This document shows, piece after piece, positions 2,062 through 53,455 of a stretch of 64,000 bases of DNA (position 1 is its first letter; the number at the start of each line of letters is the position of its first letter). The translations under genes and the position numbers were made by a program. The notes under the pieces are model-generated. The model had not been told where the DNA came from. It worked only from the letters and a program-made list of their open reading frames with translations, and searched no databases. Source of the DNA: a virus. The stretch spans positions 1 through 64,000 of the IMG/VR virus record IMGVR_UViG_3300017678_000008, one strand, 5' to 3'.

Positions 2062-2136
2062 GGGCGGTTAGCTCAGTGGTAGAGCACTACAATGACACTG
2101 TAGGGGTCACAGGTTCAAATCCTGTACCGCCCACCA
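2062..2136 (+). tRNA. tRNA-Val (anticodon GAC), prophage attachment site
   Basis: A full 75-nt cloverleaf: acceptor GGGCGGT (2062-2068) pairs with ACCGCCC (2126-2132), D-arm GCTC/GAGC, anticodon stem CTACA/TGTAG around loop ATGACAC (anticodon GAC at 2094-2096), T-arm ACAGG/CCTGT around TTCAAAT, discriminator A and an encoded CCA. The last 47 nt are repeated at 35030-35076, so the 3' half of this gene is supplied by the integrated prophage, which keeps the tRNA intact. Confidence 0.95.
2090..2136 (+). repeat. attL: attL core: 47-bp direct repeat within tRNA-Val
   Basis: The 47 bases from the anticodon stem to the CCA end are identical to 35030-35076 and flanking bases differ at both ends. This is the usual core of a tRNA-targeting tyrosine integrase. 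Its integrase gene lies 80 bp inside. Strand exchange probably occurs around the anticodon loop. Confidence 0.93.
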
Positions 2137-2167: not shown

Positions 2168-2217
2168 AAAGGCTCACACTCCTCACTTTTGGGGATGTGA
2201 GCCTTTAATGTGAGCCC
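2168..2217. repeat. Left-end TGTGAGCC sites forming a hairpin (arm-type integrase sites or terminator)
   Basis: AAAGGCTCACA (2168-2178) is a perfect inverted repeat of TGTGAGCCTTT (2196-2206), and another TGTGAGCC lies at 2209-2216, reaching the integrase stop codon. The same 8-mer occurs three times at the right end (34923-34958). Two readings fit: a terminator after the integrase gene, or arm-type integrase-binding sites at both prophage ends. Both may be true. Confidence 0.6.
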
Positions 2218-3290
2218 TAGGCCTTTTCGGGCTCTTCGATCGCGGCCAACATCGCCCCCAATGCCGCCCTTTGGACGGACGGCCGTGACTGCGCATAAAC
2301 GCCCAGCGTCGTGCGTACTGATGCATGCCGCGCCATCGCCATCACCGTAGCAATGTCCGCCCCCGTTTCGATGAGGAGCGAGATGAAGGTGCCCCGCAAA
2401 TCGTGAAGCCGCACCGTGTCCGGAACGCCGTGGGCGCGAAGCCTAGCCCGCACGTCGCGGGTGATGTTCCGCGGGGAAAGCGGCCGCCCGGTCTCCGACG
2501 TAAAGACGAAGGCGCTGCGGCGGGGTTGCGCCTCGATGGCCTCACGCGCGAGATCCGCGAGCGGCACCGGGGCGGCGCTGGCCAGATTCTTGGTCCCTGG
2601 CACCATGAGCCGGTCACTCTGGACATGCTCCCACTTAAGCCGCACCAGTTCACCACGGCGCATGCCGGTCAGCACCAAGACGATGATCACGCATGACGTG
2701 CGATCGCCAACCACGAGCAGCTTGCGCAGCTCATCCGGATCCAGCACCCGGTTATCCCGGCGCTTAGCACCGGGCAGATGCACGCCATCCATGGGATTGG
2801 TCTCGATGTGGCCATGTTGCCGGGCTACGGTGAGGGCGCGGCGCAGATAGGCCGCCACCCGGTGGACGCTTGAAGGGGCCAGCGGGCCGTCCGGGAGGTA
2901 TGTGTCCAGGCCCTTGTCGTAGCGATGGCGATGGAGCCCATCCACCCACTTCTGGCAGTCGGCAATGGTGAGAGAGGCCAGGCGCTTAGAGTAGATCGGG
3001 TGCCCCATGATGTGCCGGATCCGGTACGTCTCTTGGAGATCGAACGTGGCGGCCGCAATCCGCCGGCAGTGCTCATCCCGAAAGTCGATGAGCCAGTCAC
3101 CAAGGGTGAGGGCGCGGGGCCTGGCGGCCTTTACTTGCTGAGCTTGCTTGACGAGCTGGCGAAGATCATTCTCCGCTTGCGCGAAGGCCTCTCTCCGAGG
3201 ACCGTAGACGTTCGTGCCGTTGGTCCGGAGCCGTGCGCGATAGCCACCCCGAAACTCCGCTATGGTCCCCAACCCCCGGGGCCGCTTCAT
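2217..3290 (-). CDS. int: Tyrosine integrase (prophage 1)
   Basis: A 357-residue site-specific recombinase that should integrate and excise prophage 1 at tRNA-Val. The N-terminal part (residues 1-40) has an AP2-like arm-binding look, residues 60-165 form the core-binding SAM-like domain, and the catalytic domain follows with Arg211 (TGMRRGEL), Lys234 (PGTKN), His296 and Arg299 (HDLRG), His322 (ARHAS) and the nucleophile Tyr332 (VYAQ). All catalytic residues are present. It lies next to attL and is transcribed toward it. Its start lies inside the excisionase-like gene, out of frame, so the two are co-transcribed. Confidence 0.95.
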   Translation of the reverse strand: MKRPRGLGTIAEFRGGYRARLRTNGTNVYGPRREAFAQAENDLRQLVKQAQQVKAARPRALTLGDWLIDFRDEHCRRIAAATFDLQETYRIRHIMGHPIYSKRLASLTIADCQKWVDGLHRHRYDKGLDTYLPDGPLAPSSVHRVAAYLRRALTVARQHGHIETNPMDGVHLPGAKRRDNRVLDPDELRKLLVVGDRTSCVIIVLVLTGMRRGELVRLKWEHVQSDRLMVPGTKNLASAAPVPLADLAREAIEAQPRRSAFVFTSETGRPLSPRNITRDVRARLRAHGVPDTVRLHDLRGTFISLLIETGADIATVMAMARHASVRTTLGVYAQSRPSVQRAALGAMLAAIEEPEKA

Positions 3291-4848: not shown

Positions 4849-5057
4849 TGCACGGCATCACTGGCCATGTGCGCCGGGGGAACGCGCGCACGTACCGACA
4901 GGGAGTTCGCCACGGGGTAGCCATGACGGTGGCCGGGATGGCACTCATGGTGGCCGCCTACTTTGTCCTAGCCTATGGCCTCGATCGCCAGCACGAAATG
5001 GACACCGCCAAGTGGGAGCGAAACGAGCGCCTAGCCGCCGAGTGGGGTGGCCGCTAA
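4848..5057 (+). CDS. Small single-pass membrane protein, strongly conserved (prophage 1)
   Basis: A 69-residue protein: a basic start (MHGITGHVRRGNARTYRQG), one membrane helix (residues 25-44, AMTVAGMALMVAAYFVLAYG) and a charged tail ending KWERNERLAAEWGGR. The prophage 2 copy at 38146 has the same length and nearly the same sequence, making it one of the best conserved early products. Topology is probably N-in with a charged tail. The function is unknown. Confidence 0.75.
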   Translation: MHGITGHVRRGNARTYRQGVRHGVAMTVAGMALMVAAYFVLAYGLDRQHEMDTAKWERNERLAAEWGGR

Positions 5058-6553
5058 TGCCGAGCAAAGCCAAGAAGAAAGCAACTGAAACGGTTGATGT
5101 GCCCCCGGCAGTCGTCGCCATGCTCTCACCGGATCAGCTCGATCTCGCTCCGTTCAATCCGCGCCGAACCTTCCGCGAGGAGACAATCGCAGAGCTTGCC
5201 GGTTCCATTCTTCAGCACGGTGTCCTACAGCCCATAGTCGTACGTGAGCTTGATGGTCGGTTTCAAGTGGTCTGCGGGGCACGTCGGACCCTTGCGGCAA
5301 TTAAGGCCGCTCTCACCGCTATCCCGGCCGTCATTCGGGATCTCACAGACCAACAAGCCATAGAGGCCTCACTAACGGAGAACATGGTCCGCGAGGACGT
5401 GGAGCCGATGGAAGAGGCCCATGTCATTGATGGCCTGGCCGCCTTCTACGACACGGACCAGGCCCTCGCAGATCGTCTTGGCCGCTCAGCGGCTTGGGTT
5501 TCTCGCCGGCGACGGTTGCTAGGCCTCATCCCTGCATTGCAAGAATCGATCGAACAGCACGAGTTTCCTCTCGGTTGGTACGAGATCGCATGCCGCTTGA
5601 CCGAAGAAGACCAAGCGGCCGTACTAGGATACGTTCGGGTCTGGCCCGGCGGAGCTACTCCTAAAAGGCTCCGTGACTACCTCACACGGACTGGCGTACG
5701 CCTTGAAAGCGCACCGTTTGAACTCGATCAGCCCATTGGTGGCCGACCAGCATGCGAAGGGTGCCCGCACAACACGGCAAGCCAGGCGGATCTATTCGAT
5801 GCCGACGAACCGGCCATGTGCCGAAATCGAACCTGCTTCGATGAGAAGGCGGCAATGTTCGCCGAGCGCTTTGCGCAAGAGAATCAACTGCCTCTCATGC
5901 AGGTGAATTGGAGTCAGCGGGCCTATCCAGAGGAGCACTTTGATGAGACCATCCACAAGGGCTTGACAAGAGTTGTGGTTGGGCCAGGCTCTCAACGGGG
6001 GCCAGTCGGCCAGGTGCTTTACGTTGAAGTGCCAGAGCCTCGCCCAGAAGGTGAGATCGACCCAGAAAAGCTCAAGCGCCGGGCGTACCTAGCCACCTGC
6101 AAACGCGAGAACTGGATCCGGTGGCAGCTGCTCGAAAGCCTTGGCCGCCAGGTCGCAGTGCTGGGCGAACTCGATGTGACAAATGCCCTTGCCAACCTTC
6201 ACTACATCTTATGGCGCGTGATGCGTGGCGGCAACATCAGCATCCAGGATAAGCATCGAATCAGCCGGCCGGAATTCTTGGGCCTCGCCCAGATCAATGG
6301 CTACGACGAAAAGACTCCTGACCCAGATAGCCGAAAGGCGCTCCTAGCCTCGCTCATTTGGGAAGCATGCCATGAAGAGCTGGCTTGCAAGGACTGGGCC
6401 GGGCAAAACCGAGAACACCAACCAGACACGGCCATCCAGGAGGCTTATACGGCCCTGGGGGCGGACTACCTGCATTACCGGCAGCTTTTCGAAGGGCAGT
6501 GGGCCGAGAAGTCTGAGGGCAAAAAGGCAAAGGAGGGCGAGGTTGACGCCTGA
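5057..6553 (+). CDS. ParB/RepB/Spo0J-family DNA-binding protein with Cys cluster (prophage 1 only)
   Basis: A 498-residue protein from the ATG at 5057 (TAATG junction). Residues 24-115 form the ParB N-terminal domain, with GARRTLAA (74-81) at the place of the CTP-binding GERRxRA box and the ENMVRED motif (109-114). An HTH follows at about 136-155 (ALADRLGRSAAWVSRRRRLL). Cys233, Cys236, Cys255 and Cys260 form a probable metal-binding cluster seen in plasmid and phage ParB relatives. No ParA ATPase is next to it, so a role in transcription or replication is as likely as partition. Absent from prophage 2. Confidence 0.88.
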   Translation: MPSKAKKKATETVDVPPAVVAMLSPDQLDLAPFNPRRTFREETIAELAGSILQHGVLQPIVVRELDGRFQVVCGARRTLAAIKAALTAIPAVIRDLTDQQAIEASLTENMVREDVEPMEEAHVIDGLAAFYDTDQALADRLGRSAAWVSRRRRLLGLIPALQESIEQHEFPLGWYEIACRLTEEDQAAVLGYVRVWPGGATPKRLRDYLTRTGVRLESAPFELDQPIGGRPACEGCPHNTASQADLFDADEPAMCRNRTCFDEKAAMFAERFAQENQLPLMQVNWSQRAYPEEHFDETIHKGLTRVVVGPGSQRGPVGQVLYVEVPEPRPEGEIDPEKLKRRAYLATCKRENWIRWQLLESLGRQVAVLGELDVTNALANLHYILWRVMRGGNISIQDKHRISRPEFLGLAQINGYDEKTPDPDSRKALLASLIWEACHEELACKDWAGQNREHQPDTAIQEAYTALGADYLHYRQLFEGQWAEKSEGKKAKEGEVDA

Positions 6554-11570: not shown

Positions 11571-12344
11571 GTGAGACCGGTAGCGATTTCGACATGGCAG
11601 GCGGAAACAAATCCGCGCCGGTTCTCGCCCCTTTTGAGCCTTGGCGCTGGCCTGCTGGTCGCCGGAATTGGCCGACTGATCGCAGATGTGGGGTGGAGCA
11701 GCCCGGTAGCTCGCCAGGTTCATAACCTGGAGGCCGCAGGTTCAAATCCTGCCCCCGCACCTGTGATGCACTGGAAGGACAAGCCCGCGCCCGCGTACCT
11801 GGGCAAGTGGGCTCGAAGCAAGTGGGCCGAGGCGAGCCTCAAGGAACGCGCCCTGTATGTGGCCCGCAGCCAAGAGGAGGCCAAGGTCCGCGAGGTCACC
11901 GCCAACTGGTCCCCGCAGATCCGCAAGTACCTCGCCCTCACCGGCATCTTCTCACCCGCGCCGTGGTGCGCCGCCTTCGTCACCTGGTGCCTGGTGGAAG
12001 CCGGGGCCGACCGCAAGAAGCTCCCGGCCCTTGCGGCCAGCACGTACTGGTGGTTTGTGTGGGCCAAGCAGACTAAGCGCCTCAAGGTGGACAAGCGAGG
12101 CAGACCGGTCAATGATCCGGAGCGTGGCGACCTGGGCGGGTGGAATACCGGCGCGGGTCACATCTTCTTTGTCCTGGCCGTGGACGAGGAGAAGGACGTC
12201 GCAACCCTCGAAGGCAACACGGACAACGCCGGTAGCCGAGAGGGCGTAGCCGTCAAGGACCGGGTGAGGTCGTGGCCGCAGCTGAAGCGCCACTTGTTGC
12301 ATGGATACATCCGGATCACCGATGACTTGGGGGTCGGGGCGTGA
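11571..12344 (+). CDS. Endolysin, TIGR02594-like CHAP/NlpC-type peptidase (prophage 1)
   Basis: About 257 residues from GTG 11571, just after the late promoter; ATG 11766 would give 192 residues. The catalytic part holds APWCAAFVTWCLVEAG with Cys133, GAGHIFFV with His197 and LEGNTDN as the likely third residue, matching TIGR02594-type amidase/endopeptidases that cut peptidoglycan at lysis. Residues 24-44 are hydrophobic (LLSLGAGLLVAGIG) and could act as a signal-anchor. Codons 40-64 run through a tRNA(CAU)-shaped sequence. The holin follows directly. Confidence 0.8.
   Translation: MRPVAISTWQAETNPRRFSPLLSLGAGLLVAGIGRLIADVGWSSPVARQVHNLEAAGSNPAPAPVMHWKDKPAPAYLGKWARSKWAEASLKERALYVARSQEEAKVREVTANWSPQIRKYLALTGIFSPAPWCAAFVTWCLVEAGADRKKLPALAASTYWWFVWAKQTKRLKVDKRGRPVNDPERGDLGGWNTGAGHIFFVLAVDEEKDVATLEGNTDNAGSREGVAVKDRVRSWPQLKRHLLHGYIRITDDLGVGA
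11687..11760 (+). tRNA. Initiator-like tRNA(CAU) inside the endolysin reading frame (prophage 1)
   Basis: A full cloverleaf: acceptor TGTGGGG/CCCCGCA, D-arm GAGC/GCTC with loop AGCCCGGTA, anticodon stem CCAGG/CCTGG with loop TTCATAA (CAT at 11721-11723), T-arm GCAGG/CCTGC with TTCAAAT. The A11-T24 pair and D-arm are typical of initiator tRNA-fMet. However, only two of the three G-C pairs near the anticodon are kept, position 1-72 is T-A, the discriminator is C and no CCA follows. It may be a functional phage tRNA or a captured fragment. Confidence 0.65.
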
Positions 12345-18048: not shown

Positions 18049-18916
18049 TATTCCCGACTACACCAGTTCGCTCATGGCCAGCATGCTCGGTCCCACCGAG
18101 GGATCAGCCGCCGAGGATAGCGCGGCCACGACGACCAATACCGACGACAACCAGACCACCACGGAGCAGGGTGGCGAGGAAGACGAAACCAGCGAAGCGC
18201 AAGCCAGTGACGACACCACGGAGCAAGGTGACGAGAACGGCGAAGCGGCAAGCGAGGACACCGAGACCGAAACAAAAGCCACTTCGCCCGCAGCGGAGCA
18301 GCTTGTCGCGACCTTTGGCGAAGACGGTGTGACCGTCCTCGCGGCCATGTTTGACCCGGCAGAGGCGCGTACGATCGTGCCCGCCGTACTGAAGCACATC
18401 GTGGAATCCACGGGGATCGACCTGGCGGAGCTGGTCGGGATCTCACCGGAGCCAGTGGAATGGGCCGACATGGACGAAAGGCAACGCGCCGCGTTCATTG
18501 AACAGCGCGTAAAGAGCGAAGTCGACAAGCGCACCAAGCCGATGCAGGACGAAATCAGCGCTGCCCGCCAGGAGCGCGAGAACACCCAATGGGCCAGGGA
18601 GAACCTGAGCCGGGTGAAGAACGCACTCAAGGCCGATGGCGTGGACGGTTGGGACCTGTCACACAAGCGCCTGCTCGAAGTGATCCGGGAAAACCCGGGA
18701 GCCACCAAGAGCATGAGCGCCGTGAAGGCCGCGATCATGGCCAAGCACGGAATCGAGATCCTCAAGTTAGTACGCGCCGCATCCACGCAGGAGCGGACGC
18801 CAGGGCCGGAGGCCATGACCAGCGCCGCGCCGGGGATGCAAACCCGGACGGATTCCATCGGGGACCTTGGCGTAGCAATCGCGCAAGAGAGCGCCGCTAA
18901 GCGTGCCCGGGGCTGA
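18041..18916 (+). CDS. Scaffolding protein (prophage 1)
   Basis: A 291-residue protein. Residues 20-80 are extremely Asp/Glu/Thr-rich and disordered (EDETSEAQASDDTTEQGDEN); residues 85-140 are a small helical domain (QLVATFGEDGVTVLAAMFDP); residues 150-230 are a charged coiled coil; the basic tail probably docks onto the capsid protein. This is the usual layout of phage scaffolds directly upstream of the capsid gene. The prophage 2 copy keeps the layout. Confidence 0.75.
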   Translation: MSDIPDYTSSLMASMLGPTEGSAAEDSAATTTNTDDNQTTTEQGGEEDETSEAQASDDTTEQGDENGEAASEDTETETKATSPAAEQLVATFGEDGVTVLAAMFDPAEARTIVPAVLKHIVESTGIDLAELVGISPEPVEWADMDERQRAAFIEQRVKSEVDKRTKPMQDEISAARQERENTQWARENLSRVKNALKADGVDGWDLSHKRLLEVIRENPGATKSMSAVKAAIMAKHGIEILKLVRAASTQERTPGPEAMTSAAPGMQTRTDSIGDLGVAIAQESAAKRARG

Positions 18917-18947: not shown

Positions 18948-19994
18948 TTGCCCGCACTAACCTACGCTGACATTGGACTCTCAGTCCACAAGATCACGAC
19001 CCAGAAGAGCATGCTCGCTGGTCACAAGTCGGACCCCGTGGTCCGTGCAATCTTAGGCGATCTGCTGGACCCCGGCTTTGTCGAGCCGGACAAGCAGCAA
19101 TTGCCGACGTTCTCGCGATTGCGGACGGACACGGAAGGCCAGTCGTTCCAACACGACCTGATCAAGCCGGAAGCCGGCTATAACCGCGCCGTCACGACGG
19201 CGCAGCAAATGGCCACCCTGGTGCCGGACACGACCGAGAAGTACGGTCAGGCCCGGTTTAACCTGACGCTCTTCCCAATTAACGAGCACATTTCGGAAAA
19301 GAAGGTGACGCAAATCACCGACACCATGCGCCAAGGCAACGGCTCAATCTTCGAGGCCGAAGTCATTCGCATCACCCGCAAGATCCACAAGACGATCGCG
19401 ACCGCGCTGATGAGCCCAACGATCAACACCGGCACGGATCTCGAAAGTGGGGGCCTCGTGTACGCCATTGACGCGGCGAATGACTACGGCGGAGTGCTTC
19501 GGTCGGACGCGAGTGGCGAGCTTTTCCGGGGTGTCGTGACAAATCTCACGCCTGCGCCGAATAACGGGAACATCTCGCTCGAATTGATCACGCGAGCTCA
19601 AGGGCAATGCGCGGACAATGGCGGCAGCCCGAAGCTTGTGGTGTGCGGTCTGGACATCTGGTCCAAGCTTAAGCGCCTGGTGGAGCAGGAAGCCAATTCT
19701 GGCGCGGCCAGCATGACCGACACCTCGCTCGCCCTCGGGAAGCCCCATTTCGTGTACAGCGGCATGGTCTTTGTGCACTCGCCGTACATTGCCGCAGACG
19801 TCATTCTTGGCGTGGATCCGGAGAGCCTGATCACCTTTGCAAGGTTCCCGGGCCTTAACGCCGGAGACTTCACGTGGATGATCAACCCGAACACCGAAGC
19901 GAGCTGGCTCTACAAGGCGAACATGTACTTCTGCCCGATCGTTGAGAATCCGTCCTGGAACTTCAAGTTCACCGGCGCTCTCGACGTCGTTTAA
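18948..19994 (+). CDS. Major capsid protein (prophage 1)
   Basis: A 348-residue protein from TTG 18948, with AAGGAG about 9 nt upstream; prophage 2 uses GTG at the equivalent place. The size, order and segments such as FVYSGMVFVHSPYIAADVILGV (about residues 267-288) with the conserved end WMINPNTEASWLYKANMYFCPI fit an HK97-fold capsid subunit of Epsilon15/BPP-1-type podoviruses. A strong hairpin follows at 20006-20033. Confidence 0.8.
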   Translation: MPALTYADIGLSVHKITTQKSMLAGHKSDPVVRAILGDLLDPGFVEPDKQQLPTFSRLRTDTEGQSFQHDLIKPEAGYNRAVTTAQQMATLVPDTTEKYGQARFNLTLFPINEHISEKKVTQITDTMRQGNGSIFEAEVIRITRKIHKTIATALMSPTINTGTDLESGGLVYAIDAANDYGGVLRSDASGELFRGVVTNLTPAPNNGNISLELITRAQGQCADNGGSPKLVVCGLDIWSKLKRLVEQEANSGAASMTDTSLALGKPHFVYSGMVFVHSPYIAADVILGVDPESLITFARFPGLNAGDFTWMINPNTEASWLYKANMYFCPIVENPSWNFKFTGALDVV

Positions 19995-20005
19995 GACCCG
20001 ACCGT

Positions 20006-20033
20006 GCGGCCCTAGTTGGATGGCTAGGGCCGC
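20006..20033 (+). promoter_or_regulatory. Conserved RNA hairpin with TTGGATGG loop after the capsid gene (prophage 1)
   Basis: Stem GCGGCCCTAG (20006-20015) pairs perfectly with CTAGGGCCGC (20024-20033) around loop TTGGATGG. Prophage 2 has the same octaloop in the same place on a stem of different sequence, with pairing kept. No T-tract follows, so attenuation, RNA processing or protein binding are as likely as termination. Confidence 0.75.
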
Positions 20034-20050
20034 CGTGACCCCTTCACCCC

Positions 20051-20707
20051 ATGAACTTAGAAGACATCCAAAACATCATGAAAGAGGTCCTCGCCCAGGA
20101 TCTCGATAACCGGGCCGGTGACGATCCCACCAGCGACCAGCTCACGGCGCAGCTGAATGAGGCCGCCCGGAAGCTCAGTACCGACGTCCGGCCGATTGAG
20201 CGCCTTCAGATTGCTTACACCCCCGCAGATCCCACGATCAACCTGGATAGCCTCGCCCGCCGTGTGATTGCCGTCTGGCAAGTCCAGGTCAATGGGGTGC
20301 CCATCCGCGACCACCGAGGAGAGCAGCGCATCGATACGTACGAGCAGCTCTCCCTCGACATTCCTGGCTTCGAAGTCGGTGGCACGCCCGGTCTGCCAAA
20401 GAGAGCCGCCACACTGGGACGAGAGCTGTACCTGTACCCGGCCCCGGTCGCGGGGCACACGATCACCGTAGTAGCCGACACCTACTTCCCGGACATGCCC
20501 TCCGCCCTAGATCAGCCGGTCCTCATGCCCAAAGATCTCGCCGAAGCCTGCGCGTACTATGCGGCCGTGCTGGCCGCCGAAAGCCGCAAGCATGTCGCCT
20601 ACCAAGCAGAAAGGCTCAATGACGCCAGAGTGCGAGGCGAGACAACCGCCGCCAAGTGGCGAGCGGTGTACGACCAGCAGCGGAGTGACCTGGGGGTGAG
20701 CGCGTGA
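20051..20707 (+). CDS. Head-tail adaptor-like protein (prophage 1)
   Basis: A 218-residue protein, the first of three short genes after the capsid. The N-terminus is helical (DNRAGDDPTSDQLTAQLNEAARKLSTDV); the middle is beta-rich (VRPIERLQIAYTPADPTINLDSLARRVIAVWQVQVNGVPIRDHRG); the C-terminal part is helical (PKDLAEACAYYAAVLAAESRKH). Such proteins usually form the adaptor ring beneath the portal. The assignment rests on position, size and fold pattern. Confidence 0.6.
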   Translation: MNLEDIQNIMKEVLAQDLDNRAGDDPTSDQLTAQLNEAARKLSTDVRPIERLQIAYTPADPTINLDSLARRVIAVWQVQVNGVPIRDHRGEQRIDTYEQLSLDIPGFEVGGTPGLPKRAATLGRELYLYPAPVAGHTITVVADTYFPDMPSALDQPVLMPKDLAEACAYYAAVLAAESRKHVAYQAERLNDARVRGETTAAKWRAVYDQQRSDLGVSA

Positions 20708-35029: not shown

Positions 35030-35076
35030 CAATGACACTGTAGGGGTCACAGGTTCAAATCCTGTACCGCCCACCA
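35030..35076 (+). repeat. Middle att site between the two prophages (47-bp core)
   Basis: Identical to the last 47 nt of tRNA-Val (2090-2136). The 5' half of the tRNA is absent, so it is no gene. It is the right end of prophage 1 and the left end of prophage 2, whose integrase starts 22 bp further on. Confidence 0.93.
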
Positions 35077-35097: not shown

Positions 35098-36210
35098 TTA
35101 GGCCGAATCCTTCCCCGTTTGGTCATTGTGCCCCCTATCTTGGCCCCCTATCTCACCAGGCACCACCGCCGACAGCATCGCCGAGAGGGCCGCCTGCTGC
35201 ACGGCCGCCCGACTTTGGGCATAGACGCCGAGCGTGGTGCGGACCGACGAGTGCCTGGCCATCGCCATGACCGTGGCAATATCGGCGCCCGACTCGACAA
35301 GCAGGGAGACGTAGGTGCCCCGGAGATCGTGCAGCCGCACCGAGTCAGGCAGGCCGTGAGCGCGTAGCCTGGCGCGGACATTGCGCGTAATGTTCCGAGG
35401 CGACAGCGGCCGCCCTGATTTAGTGGTGAACACGAAGCTGGACCGACGAGGCTGCGCATCAATGGCCTGGCGCGCCAGGTCAGCCAGTGGTACAGGCGCC
35501 AGACTGGCCGCATTCTTGGTGCCCGGCACCAGCAGCCTATCGCCCTGGACGTGGTGCCATTCAAGCCGAGCCAGCTCACCGCGCCGCATGCCCGTCAGCA
35601 CCAGCACCACGATGATGCAGGCCGTCCTATCGCCCACCACCAAGAGCTGGCGCAGCTCATCCGGGCCGAGGGTGCGATTCTGGCGCCGCCGCGTGGCCGG
35701 CAGGAGGACGCCCGCCATCGGGTCGTGATCGAGATACCCGTGCTGCCTGGCCACCGTGAGCGCCCGACGCAGGTAGGCCACCACCCGGTGGACGCTGGAC
35801 GGCGCCAGCGCGCCGGCCGGCACATAATCCCCTACGATCGTAGAGAACTCATGCCGCTGCAGACCGTCCACCCAGCGCTGCAGCGCCGGCAGCGTGAGCT
35901 GAGTCAGCCGGGTGCGATACAGCGGGTGGCCAAACAGGTGGCGCAGCCGGTACGTCTCATTGAGATCAAAGGTGCCGGCCGCAAGCCGGTGCGAATGATC
36001 ATCCCGGTACAGCACCAGCCAATCGCCAAGAGTGAGAGCGCGCCCCGGAACCGAGCGCGTGGGCTGCTGGCGCAGCCGAGTGAGATCCTGCTCAGCTTCC
36101 CTGAACGTCTCGCGACGAGGCCCGAACACGTCCGTGCCCGCCACCCTGACGCGCGCGCGAAACCCGCCCCGAAACGGGCGGATGCTCCCCGCTCCCTTCG
36201 GCCGTCTCAT
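35098..36210 (-). CDS. int: Tyrosine integrase (prophage 2)
   Basis: A 370-residue protein from ATG 36208-36210; a TTG five codons upstream is possible. It is closely similar to the prophage 1 integrase through all domains, with the catalytic motifs TGMRRGEL, PGTKN, HDLRGTY, ARHSS and VYAQ containing the Arg, Lys, His-Arg, His and Tyr residues. The extra C-terminal tail (VVPGEIGGQDRGHNDQTG) is absent from prophage 1. It should use the same tRNA-Val core, consistent with the tandem integration. Confidence 0.95.
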   Translation of the reverse strand: MRRPKGAGSIRPFRGGFRARVRVAGTDVFGPRRETFREAEQDLTRLRQQPTRSVPGRALTLGDWLVLYRDDHSHRLAAGTFDLNETYRLRHLFGHPLYRTRLTQLTLPALQRWVDGLQRHEFSTIVGDYVPAGALAPSSVHRVVAYLRRALTVARQHGYLDHDPMAGVLLPATRRRQNRTLGPDELRQLLVVGDRTACIIVVLVLTGMRRGELARLEWHHVQGDRLLVPGTKNAASLAPVPLADLARQAIDAQPRRSSFVFTTKSGRPLSPRNITRNVRARLRAHGLPDSVRLHDLRGTYVSLLVESGADIATVMAMARHSSVRTTLGVYAQSRAAVQQAALSAMLSAVVPGEIGGQDRGHNDQTGKDSA

Positions 36211-36415
36211 CGGGCGCCCAGCCAATCAGCTGCAGGGGATTGACCCACCAAGAGCCATCTGGTCCTTTGAACGCGCCGGGAATCTTGCCGAGCTGCGCCC
36301 ATCGCCGGGCCTGCTCCGAGGAAGTGCCCCAGAGCGCCGCATACTCGGCAACCGGGCGCGGGATAAGCGCATCGGGATTCTGCAGCGCGATGGTCACGGA
36401 CACCGGGCGGGACAT
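36092..36415 (-). CDS. Excisionase-like small HTH protein (prophage 2)
   Basis: A 107-residue winged-helix protein with EYAALWGTSSEQARRWAQLG, PGAFKGPDGSWWV and PLQLIGWAP, matching the prophage 1 copy. After about residue 70 the two diverge because the frame enters the integrase gene (119-nt overlap out of frame). The ATG lies 7 nt after a CATACT box. Probably Xis or an integrase regulator. Confidence 0.72.
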   Translation of the reverse strand: MSRPVSVTIALQNPDALIPRPVAEYAALWGTSSEQARRWAQLGKIPGAFKGPDGSWWVNPLQLIGWAPDETAEGSGEHPPVSGRVSRARQGGGHGRVRASSRDVQGS

Positions 36416-43285: not shown

Positions 43286-43700
43286 CGCCGGCCGTGGCCT
43301 GGTCGCTAGACCGGGCCGCCTGGCGCTCATCATCGAGCGCCCTATCAAACGCCACCGGATAACGCCGGCGAGCCAGGAGCGCCTGCTGCAGGTTGTAAGT
43401 GGCCCAGCCTGGCACGTTCAGCGCATCGAGCAGCTGGTGGCCAGCAAACCGCGCCGGCGCCTCACGGCCGGCCAGTAGCCGCAGGTACCGGTGGACATCG
43501 CACAGCAGCAGCACTAGCAGAAACGGCAGCGCGGCCGCCAGCCACAAAGGCCACGCGATCGCGATCGCGGCCGTCCGCACCCGCCGAGGGTAGTAACTAA
43601 GGTCCACCGCGTCACAGACGAGCACGGCGCCCACCAGGAGCACGGCGAAGCCAGGCCAAGAATAAAGCCAGGCGACAGCACCGAATAAGAAAGCGACCAT
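43266..43700 (-). CDS. Convergent small membrane protein (prophage 2)
   Basis: 144 residues from ATG 43698-43700, overlapping the primase 3' end by 20 nt. Membrane helices at about residues 2-28 (AFLFGAVAWLYSWPGFAVLLVGAVLV) and 42-66 (AAIAIAWPLWLAAALPFLLVLLL), then a longer Arg/Ala-rich cytosolic tail than in prophage 1. Own leaderless promoter and opposite strand suggest expression in the lysogen. Confidence 0.7.
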   Translation of the reverse strand: MVAFLFGAVAWLYSWPGFAVLLVGAVLVCDAVDLSYYPRRVRTAAIAIAWPLWLAAALPFLLVLLLCDVHRYLRLLAGREAPARFAGHQLLDALNVPGWATYNLQQALLARRRYPVAFDRALDDERQAARSSDQATAGVTPAPR

Positions 43701-51681: not shown

Positions 51682-52731
51682 GTGCCTGCCGTAACTTTCA
51701 ACGACGTAGGGTTAGCCCTGCACCGAATCGCCACCCTGCACAGCCTGAAAAATGGCTGGCTTTACGACCCGCTACTGCGCGCCATCTTCGGCGACATGCT
51801 GGAGCCTGGCGACGTGGGCGACAAGACGCGCCCGACGCTCCCCAAGTTTGCCCGCGTGGACGACGAAATCGACGGCGAACTGTTCCGCTACGACCTGATG
51901 AAGGCGCAGGCGGGATACGACCGCAGCGCGACCATCGCCGACCAAATGGGCGCCCGGAGCGTGGACACGAGCGACAAGTACGCCAAGGCGACCTTTGAGC
52001 CGACGATGTTCCCCATCGGCGAGGACATCGCCGTGAGCAAGTTGGAGAAGATCACGGCCCAGATGCGCCAAAACAAGGGCGACCTGGCCGCGCTGGAGGC
52101 CAAGCGAATCCTGAACCGCATTCAGATCACGCTGGTGCGCGCGCTGCTCAGCACGACGACCAACACGAGCGCGGACTGTTTGAGTGGTGGCCTGCCCTAT
52201 GGCATTGACGCCGCCAACACGTACGGCACCGTGGACCGGAGCGACAGCACCGGCGCCATGTTCCGGGGCCAAGTGCTGGACCTCGACAACGTGACCGATA
52301 ACAGCATCCTCACGCTGGACCACCTGACCGCGATGCAGGCCGCCTGCGACAGTACGGTGGGCAGCGTCAGCCTGGTGGTATGCGGCCGCGCGATTTGGGC
52401 AAAGCTGGCGCGCAAGGTGGAGTCCTTGGCCGGCCAGGGCGCCGCCACAATGGGCGGAAACGAGCTGATGGTCGGGAAACCGCACTTCCAGTACCGTGGA
52501 ATGACCTTCATTCACAGCCCGTACATCGCGGCCGACATGGTGCTCGGGCTCTGCCCCGAGTCCATTCACACCAAGGTGAAGCTGCCCAGCCTCGATGAAG
52601 GTTCATTCCAGTGGGAACGCAACCAGACGACGAAAGCGAGCTACCTGTACCAGAGTGAAATCTACTTCTGCCCCGTGGTGGAAGTGCCGGGCGCAAACTT
52701 CAAGATTCTCAGCGCCGACAACGTAGCGTAA
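51682..52731 (+). CDS. Major capsid protein (prophage 2)
   Basis: 349 residues from GTG 51682 with AAGGAG upstream. Conserved blocks with prophage 1 include TFNDVGLALHRI, DLMKAQAGYDR, FQYRGMTFIHSPYIAADMVLG and the end YLYQSEIYFCPVVE. HK97-fold capsid subunit by size, order and pattern. The TTGGATGG hairpin follows. Confidence 0.8.
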   Translation: MPAVTFNDVGLALHRIATLHSLKNGWLYDPLLRAIFGDMLEPGDVGDKTRPTLPKFARVDDEIDGELFRYDLMKAQAGYDRSATIADQMGARSVDTSDKYAKATFEPTMFPIGEDIAVSKLEKITAQMRQNKGDLAALEAKRILNRIQITLVRALLSTTTNTSADCLSGGLPYGIDAANTYGTVDRSDSTGAMFRGQVLDLDNVTDNSILTLDHLTAMQAACDSTVGSVSLVVCGRAIWAKLARKVESLAGQGAATMGGNELMVGKPHFQYRGMTFIHSPYIAADMVLGLCPESIHTKVKLPSLDEGSFQWERNQTTKASYLYQSEIYFCPVVEVPGANFKILSADNVA

Positions 52732-52744
52732 CGACCAGACCCAC

Positions 52745-52774
52745 GTGGCGGCCGGTTGGATGGCTGGCCGCCAC
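52745..52774 (+). promoter_or_regulatory. Conserved RNA hairpin with TTGGATGG loop after the capsid gene (prophage 2)
   Basis: GTGGCGGCCGG (52745-52755) pairs with CTGGCCGCCAC (52764-52774; one G-T pair) around loop TTGGATGG. The stem sequence differs from prophage 1 at several paired positions, yet pairing and the loop are kept. Confidence 0.75.
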
Positions 52775-52792
52775 CTACGACCGCCCACCACG

Positions 52793-53455
52793 ATGGCCCA
52801 CACCCTTACCTACATCCGCAAACAGGTGACGGACCTGCTCGATCAGGACCTGGACAACCGCATAGGCGACGCGCCGACCGACGCCGACATAGACGCGCAG
52901 CTGAACGAAGCCGCTCGTAAGGTCAGCACCGACGTGCGACCCATCAAGCGCCTGACGCTGGCCTACACCGATAACACCCCGACCGTGGACCTGGACGCCC
53001 ACACCCCGCGAATCATGCAGGTGCACCAGGTGCAGGTAGGCGCCAGCACACTGGTGGACCACCGAGGCCGCCGCATGATTTACACCTATGAGCAGCTGGC
53101 CCTGGACCGCCCCGGATTCGAAAGCGGAGGGACGCCCGGCATCCCCACCGCCGCCGCGCAGCTGGCCGAAACCCTGTACCTGCACCCCGCGCCGACCACC
53201 GGGCAGACGATCAGGGTGGTGGCCGACGTGTACCTGGCCAGCATGCCAGCAGCGGGTGGCGACCCGGTAGACATGCCCAAGGACCTGGCCGAGGCCGTGG
53301 CCTACCACGCCGCCGTGCTGGCCGCCGAATCCCGCCAGCACATGCCCCACCAGACGAAGCGCCTGGAGGACGCCCGCGCCCGCGCCGATGAGGCAGTAAC
53401 TAAGTGGCGCCGGCGCTACGACATTCAGCGGATGCAGATGGGGGTGGCCGTATGA
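52793..53455 (+). CDS. Head-tail adaptor-like protein (prophage 2)
   Basis: 220 residues from ATG 52793. Counterpart of 20051-20707: DLDNRIGDAPTDADIDAQLNEAARK, STDVRPIKRLTLAY, MPKDLAEAVAYHAAVLAAESRQH. Position and size indicate a neck adaptor. Confidence 0.6.
   Translation: MAHTLTYIRKQVTDLLDQDLDNRIGDAPTDADIDAQLNEAARKVSTDVRPIKRLTLAYTDNTPTVDLDAHTPRIMQVHQVQVGASTLVDHRGRRMIYTYEQLALDRPGFESGGTPGIPTAAAQLAETLYLHPAPTTGQTIRVVADVYLASMPAAGGDPVDMPKDLAEAVAYHAAVLAAESRQHMPHQTKRLEDARARADEAVTKWRRRYDIQRMQMGVAV

What the first reader, a model, noticed from the sequence alone, without database searches (positions are those of the whole stretch)
20006..20033. Covarying hairpin with an invariant TTGGATGG loop after the capsid gene
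Both prophages carry an 8-nt identical loop on stems of different sequence (GCGGCCCTAG/CTAGGGCCGC versus GTGGCGGCCGG/CTGGCCGCCAC). Several pairs are compensated. It lies 10-15 nt after the capsid stop and there is no T-tract. This points to selection on RNA structure plus loop sequence, such as a protein-binding attenuator or processing site that sets capsid against tail gene output.
Basis: partly seen in the sequence, partly recalled or inferred. Interest (0 to 1): 0.72.

Follow-up and report, generated by a model that had tools for sequence, protein, structure and literature searches.

The report
Hairpin terminator after phage capsid gene
Two neighbouring prophages carry an RNA hairpin just after the gene for their main shell protein; phages with this type of shell gene usually have a transcription-stop hairpin there, so this is most likely that ordinary "make lots of shell, less of everything else" signal, with one unexplained oddity, a loop sequence that stayed fixed while the stem changed.

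Summary
Hairpins at 20006-20033 and 52745-52774 share the loop TTGGATGG on different 10-11 bp stems. Six of ten pairs differ on both sides, yet all pair. They sit 11 and 13 nt after the stops of the major capsid genes (47% amino-acid identity) of two tandem prophages, before SU10-type adaptor genes. Fourfold sites there are about 41% identical, so drift does not readily explain an intact loop. An Armatimonadota MAG contig (Chthonomonas sp. UBA2785) has the identical hairpin in the same place, but inside a nearly identical block, so it is not independent.

Wider comparison changes the reading. Post-capsid hairpins recur: 6 of 11 other Armatimonadota prophage capsid genes versus 14 of 165 other gene ends (Fisher p = 3e-4), and 5 of 5 named phages with SU10-type capsids, two with clear T-tracts. 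None has this loop. The best explanation is a capsid-gene 3'-end terminator or attenuator of the U-tract-less kind, raising capsid output over adaptor and tail. The capsid genes have the best Shine-Dalgarno sites (AAGGAG); the adaptors have none recognisable. Why this small clade keeps its loop is unexplained. CsrA binding is possible but the defining ANGGAX loop is absent. No transcript data exist.

The parts
18948..19994 (+). Major capsid protein gene, prophage 1 (348 aa, TTG start, AAGGAG Shine-Dalgarno)
   Evidence: Weak SU10_MCP match (PF17236, 22.9 bits, E 7e-5, just under the 24.1-bit cut-off); 47% identical to 51682-52731; Shine-Dalgarno scan
20006..20033 (+). Post-capsid hairpin, prophage 1: 10-bp stem, TTGGATGG loop
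20051..20707 (+). Adaptor gene, prophage 1 (218 aa); no recognisable Shine-Dalgarno, ATG 17 nt after the hairpin
   Evidence: PF24175 SU10_adaptor, E 2.5e-11
51682..52731 (+). Major capsid protein gene, prophage 2 (349 aa, GTG start, AAGGAG Shine-Dalgarno)
   Evidence: Homology to 18948-19994 and gene order; no Pfam match of its own at E 0.001
52745..52774 (+). Post-capsid hairpin, prophage 2: 11-bp stem, TTGGATGG loop
52793..53455 (+). Adaptor gene, prophage 2 (220 aa); no Shine-Dalgarno, ATG 18 nt after the hairpin
   Evidence: PF24175 SU10_adaptor, E 2.5e-9
2090..2136 (+). Left attachment site: 3' end of tRNA-Val
   Evidence: 47-bp exact repeat at 35030-35076; tRNA
35030..35076 (+). Attachment-site copy between the two tandem prophages
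   Evidence: integrases at 2217-3290 (-) and 35098-36225 (-) lie just beyond each copy

Best explanation
The hairpin is the 3'-end element of the capsid cistron in the late operon: a GC-rich, U-tract-less, partial transcription terminator. RNA polymerase reading terminase, portal, protease and capsid meets it 11-13 nt after the capsid stop. A fraction of complexes stop or pause there, and the remaining 3' end is protected from exonucleases by the stem, so capsid mRNA exceeds adaptor and tail mRNA. The adaptor has no recognisable Shine-Dalgarno and does not overlap the capsid gene, which would widen the difference. Shown: structure, covariation, place, recurrence in other phages. Inferred: termination or stabilisation activity, its efficiency, and that it acts as RNA in vivo.
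For: Six compensatory pairs between the two prophages. The capsid-adaptor gap (56 nt) is the largest in the prophage-1 structural operon, where most genes overlap by about 4 nt. Hairpins scoring at least 20 lie within 75 nt of 7 of 12 Armatimonadota prophage capsid stops versus 14 of 165 other gene ends, Fisher p = 6.6e-5; leaving out the window itself, 6 of 11, p = 3.3e-4. The same position in five named phages with SU10-type capsids (Roseobacter CRP-810, Microcystis Mel-JY34, Vibrio VS-ABTNL-3, Caulobacter Kuura, Desulfofustis LS06-2018-MD01) holds a hairpin, with runs of T after those of CRP-810 and VS-ABTNL-3. Capsid genes in both prophages have the longest Shine-Dalgarno match (AAGGAG) of the 24 structural and lysis genes scanned. 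[quoted passage not shown] U-tract-less terminators within 50 bp of stops are described for mycobacteria (PMC12288462).
Against: No T-tract, and the literature is divided on whether U-tract-less hairpins terminate: the review cites both a 2020 paper saying the tract is dispensable and a 2014 paper titled to the effect that mycobacterial polymerase requires it. A plain terminator does not need a fixed 8-nt loop. Some Armatimonadota capsid genes (G112, G128, G203, G185) have no strong hairpin after the stop. The prophage-2 61-nt stretch has an alternative fold of similar stability. No transcript data.
Confidence: 0.68

Rival explanations
1. Not a terminator but a processing or stability element: the long polycistronic transcript is cut (for example by an RNase III-type or other endonuclease) near the hairpin, and the stem then protects the capsid mRNA 3' end. 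The loop could be part of the recognition.
For: No T-tract; strong GC stem 11-13 nt after the stop; covariation; no convincing + strand T-tract terminator in either structural module. A 3' hairpin can act as a barrier to exonucleases (PMC7406221).
Against: At the same position, some other phages carry hairpins with T-tracts, the signature of termination. In Synechococcus PCC 7002, transcripts with U-tract-less hairpins had shorter half-lives than those with U-tract terminators (PMC7406221).
Confidence: 0.17
2. Protein-binding operator: a phage or host RNA-binding protein reads the TTGGATGG loop and switches adaptor translation or read-through on or off.
For: The loop plus neighbouring bases (GTTGGATGGCT, 11 nt) is identical while the stem changed; under simple neutral models matched to near-saturated sites, an intact loop has probability about 2e-4 to 7e-4. 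The loop holds GGA, and CsrA genes are present in G001, G107 and G089 and in 33 of 61 sampled Armatimonadota genomes.
Against: Loops differ in all more distant relatives. The high-affinity CsrA motif is an ANGGAX hexaloop directly on a stem (PMC4005645); here the A is a U and two extra bases follow. No CsrA gene in the virus record. Effectively one independent comparison, chosen after the fact.
Confidence: 0.12
3. Chance or shared ancestry without function: two GC-rich inverted repeats that happen to share a loop.
For: GC-rich genome (61-67%). A hairpin with the same loop occurs in an unrelated viral contig (L308, after a different gene), and one lies inside a coding region (L295), so the combination can arise by chance in large collections. 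The L002 copy is inside a block about 97% identical and is not independent.
Against: Six compensated pairs with 0-2 in slid controls; same position in both prophages; hairpins enriched after capsid genes in general.
Confidence: 0.03

Closest known systems
Terminator immediately after the major capsid gene of T7-like phages (reported for LUZ100, similar to T7)
   Same: Position directly after the capsid stop, before other virion genes; same expected outcome, extra capsid mRNA
   Different: No T-tract here; no phage RNA polymerase or local phage promoter was identified here; the phages have an SU10-type adaptor; not shown to terminate
U-tract-less ('I-shaped') intrinsic terminators of GC-rich bacteria
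   Same: GC-rich hairpin without a U-tract within 50 bp of a stop codon in a 61-67% GC genome
   Different: Described for mycobacteria and contested there; activity in Armatimonadota is untested
Post-capsid hairpins of phages with SU10-type capsids (CRP-810, Mel-JY34, VS-ABTNL-3, Kuura, LS06-2018-MD01)
   Same: Stem of 10-13 bp between capsid gene and next gene, same place
   Different: Different loops; CRP-810 and VS-ABTNL-3 have clear T-tracts
CsrA/RsmE binding hairpins
   Same: GGA in a hairpin loop; related host genomes carry CsrA
   Different: Loop is UUGGAUGG, not ANGGAX on a stem; lies after a stop codon and does not overlap a Shine-Dalgarno

Membership tests
Canonical intrinsic (Rho-independent) terminator | GC-rich hairpin | tested here: met
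   10-11 bp stems, z-scores -4.2 and -4.8
Canonical intrinsic (Rho-independent) terminator | Run of T directly after the stem | tested here: not met
   CGTGACCCCT and CTACGACCGC follow the stems; the terminator scan lists neither
U-tract-less ('I-shaped') terminator | Strong hairpin without U-tract within 50 bp after a stop codon | tested here: met
   Hairpins begin 11 and 13 nt after the stops; definition from PMC12288462
U-tract-less ('I-shaped') terminator | Transcription actually ends there | not testable with these tools
   No transcript data available
Post-capsid terminator of tailed phages | Hairpin between capsid stop and next gene, recurring in position across relatives | tested here: met
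   6 of 11 other Armatimonadota prophages and 5 of 5 named phages with SU10-type capsids
CsrA/RsmE site | ANGGAX hexaloop directly on a stem | tested here: not met
   Loop UUGGAUGG: GGA present, A replaced by U, two additional bases
CsrA/RsmE site | CsrA in the host | tested here: inconclusive
   Present in related Armatimonadota genomes; the window's own host is not identified
Any Rfam family | Match at gathering score | tested here: not met
   Only two tRNAs in the window; nothing relevant at E up to 10 around the hairpins

The most novel reading that the evidence does not exclude
The fixed TTGGATGG loop on a freely covarying stem is the binding site of a dedicated phage or host protein that controls read-through from capsid into adaptor and tail genes, i.e. 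a regulated capsid attenuator in Armatimonadota prophages.
Probability: 0.12. Interest if true: 0.6.

Novelty: new member of a known kind. Interest (0 to 1): 0.3.

Why it matters
It shows that phages with SU10-type adaptors in a little-studied bacterial phylum punctuate the capsid gene with a hairpin, as T7-like phages do, and that in GC-rich members the hairpin can lack the T-tract that terminator finders require, so such signals are missed by standard annotation. The fixed loop is a small, testable puzzle.

Tried and rejected
Loop ATG as the adaptor start codon: in frame in prophage 2 (52760 to 52793, 33 nt) but not in prophage 1 (20019 to 20051, 32 nt), by reading; rejected. Rfam family: none. 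Loop as a dispersed motif in the record: 4 TTGGATGG copies, only the two at capsid junctions in hairpins. Close relatives in IMG/VR by capsid, tail and terminase proteins: none confirmed; none by tblastn of capsid or adaptor in phage records; no meaningful DNA match of either junction in phage records. My first pattern had the wrong spacing for either copy, so it could not have recovered them and tests nothing. L002's identical hairpin was first taken as independent support; a sliding comparison shows a block of about 97% identity over 19955-20080 (flanks about 67-88%) and a second block of about 95% in the upstream gene, so recent shared descent or recombination is as good an explanation.

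Full report
WHAT IS THERE. The window lies in a 67.8-kb IMG/VR virus record. It holds two related prophages in tandem at a tRNA-Val gene: the 47-bp 3' end of the tRNA (2090-2136) is repeated exactly at 35030-35076, and a phage integrase lies just beyond each copy (2217-3290 and 35098-36225, both minus strand). The right-hand end of prophage 2 was not defined. The structural modules are homologous: terminase-like protein 59%, portal-like 58%, capsid 47%, adaptor 57%, an 839-aa virion protein 76% amino-acid identity. The adaptors match Pfam SU10_adaptor clearly; the prophage-1 capsid matches SU10_MCP weakly, just under the cut-off, and the prophage-2 capsid is identified by homology. 'Terminase' and 'portal' are positional assignments; no Pfam family matched them.

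THE HAIRPINS. All ten shared pairs form in both; six changed on both sides, one on one side, three are unchanged; slid controls give 0-2 doubly changed pairs. With only two distinct sequences the shuffle control is limited: 10 of 500 shuffles reach the observed values. Fourfold-degenerate sites of the flanking genes are 41% (capsid) and 45% (adaptor) identical. In a simple simulation of a diverged copy, all ten pairs survive in 8e-5 and the loop in 2e-4 of trials. That model is rough and was applied after seeing the data.

NOT INDEPENDENT SUPPORT. A contig of a Chthonomonas sp. MAG (UBA2785, Armatimonadota; L002) encodes a capsid 79% identical and carries the identical 28-nt hairpin at the same junction. 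The surrounding 120 nt are about 97% identical, against roughly 67-88% in the neighbouring coding sequence, and another block upstream is about 95% identical. This may reflect constraint or recent recombination, so I do not count it as independent.

WIDER COMPARISON. In Armatimonadota genomes I found SU10-type adaptors and distant capsid relatives and inspected capsid ends. Pfam confirmed capsid identity for G222, G037, G204, G112, G128 and G203, weakly for G107; G089, G099, G185 and the G075 1062-aa protein rest on homology, position or a weak protease-domain match only. The best hairpin within 75 nt of the stop scores at least 20 in 7 of 12 of these capsid ends (one copy of the window's pair counted, L002 left out), against 14 of 165 other gene ends in the same loci (Fisher p = 6.6e-5; rank test p = 0.003). 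Without the window's own copy it is 6 of 11 (p = 3.3e-4). The hairpin score and the cut-off of 20 were my own choice. In G107 the top-scoring hairpin differs from a second one (AGGGCCCC-AGCAAT-GGGGCCCT, then CTACTTTT) that looks more like a terminator. Five named phages with SU10-type capsids (28-32% identity in four, 23% in one, to the G037 capsid) all have a hairpin of score at least 20 there, with clear T-tracts in Roseobacter phage CRP-810 and Vibrio phage VS-ABTNL-3. No control gene ends were scored in those five. None of these distant hairpins has the TTGGATGG loop.

HOW IT MOST LIKELY WORKS. The capsid cistron is set apart: 31 nt before it with an AAGGAG Shine-Dalgarno, 56 nt after it with the hairpin, while most other structural genes overlap by about 4 nt (gaps measured in prophage 1). 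The adaptor has no recognisable Shine-Dalgarno in either prophage. This fits a partial terminator or 3' stabiliser that lifts capsid output, as reported for LUZ100 and T7 (PMC10134795). The missing T-tract is compatible with the U-tract-less terminators described for mycobacteria (PMC12288462), but that literature cites opposing results. A processing or stability element is the main rival and would look the same in sequence.

THE LOOP. The identical 11-nt core GTTGGATGGCT is the one feature that a plain terminator does not require. It is fixed only in the two prophages and L002. CsrA was considered because the loop contains GGA and related genomes encode CsrA, but the ANGGAX hexaloop that defines strong sites (PMC4005645) is not met. 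The U.G-closed GGAU tetraloop seen in folding could also be kept for stability or folding speed. I leave the loop unexplained.

VERDICT. Real, probably under selection for structure, and best filed by position and comparison as a post-capsid terminator-like hairpin; termination itself is not shown.

Noticed in passing
window 2090-2136, 35030-35076, 2217-3290, 35098-36225: Two related prophages integrated in tandem at one tRNA-Val gene, with a 47-bp attachment repeat between them and an integrase next to each copy.
   Followed up: partly
window 43294-43319: Another strong hairpin without T-tract (GTGGCCTGGTC-GCTA-GACCGGGCCGC) 8 nt after the stop of the prophage-2 primase gene; no counterpart of similar strength after the prophage-1 primase gene.
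   Followed up: no
window 18948 and 51682: Both capsid genes start with non-ATG codons (TTG, GTG) but have the best Shine-Dalgarno of the 24 genes scanned (AAGGAG).
   Followed up: partly
window 11687-11761: A tRNA-Met (CAT) gene inside prophage 1, beside or overlapping an endolysin-like reading frame.
   Followed up: no
window 5012-6553: ParB-domain protein in prophage 1 (PF02195, E 7e-25).
   Followed up: no
window 18431-18880 versus L002: About 95% nucleotide identity in the gene before the capsid, against 58-88% inside the capsid gene: looks like mosaic exchange between related Armatimonadota phages.
   Followed up: no
L308 11398-11437: A 16-bp hairpin with the same TTGGATGG loop right after a different small gene in a GC-rich viral contig (IMGVR_UViG_3300043610_000044); judged chance, not tested further.
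   Followed up: partly
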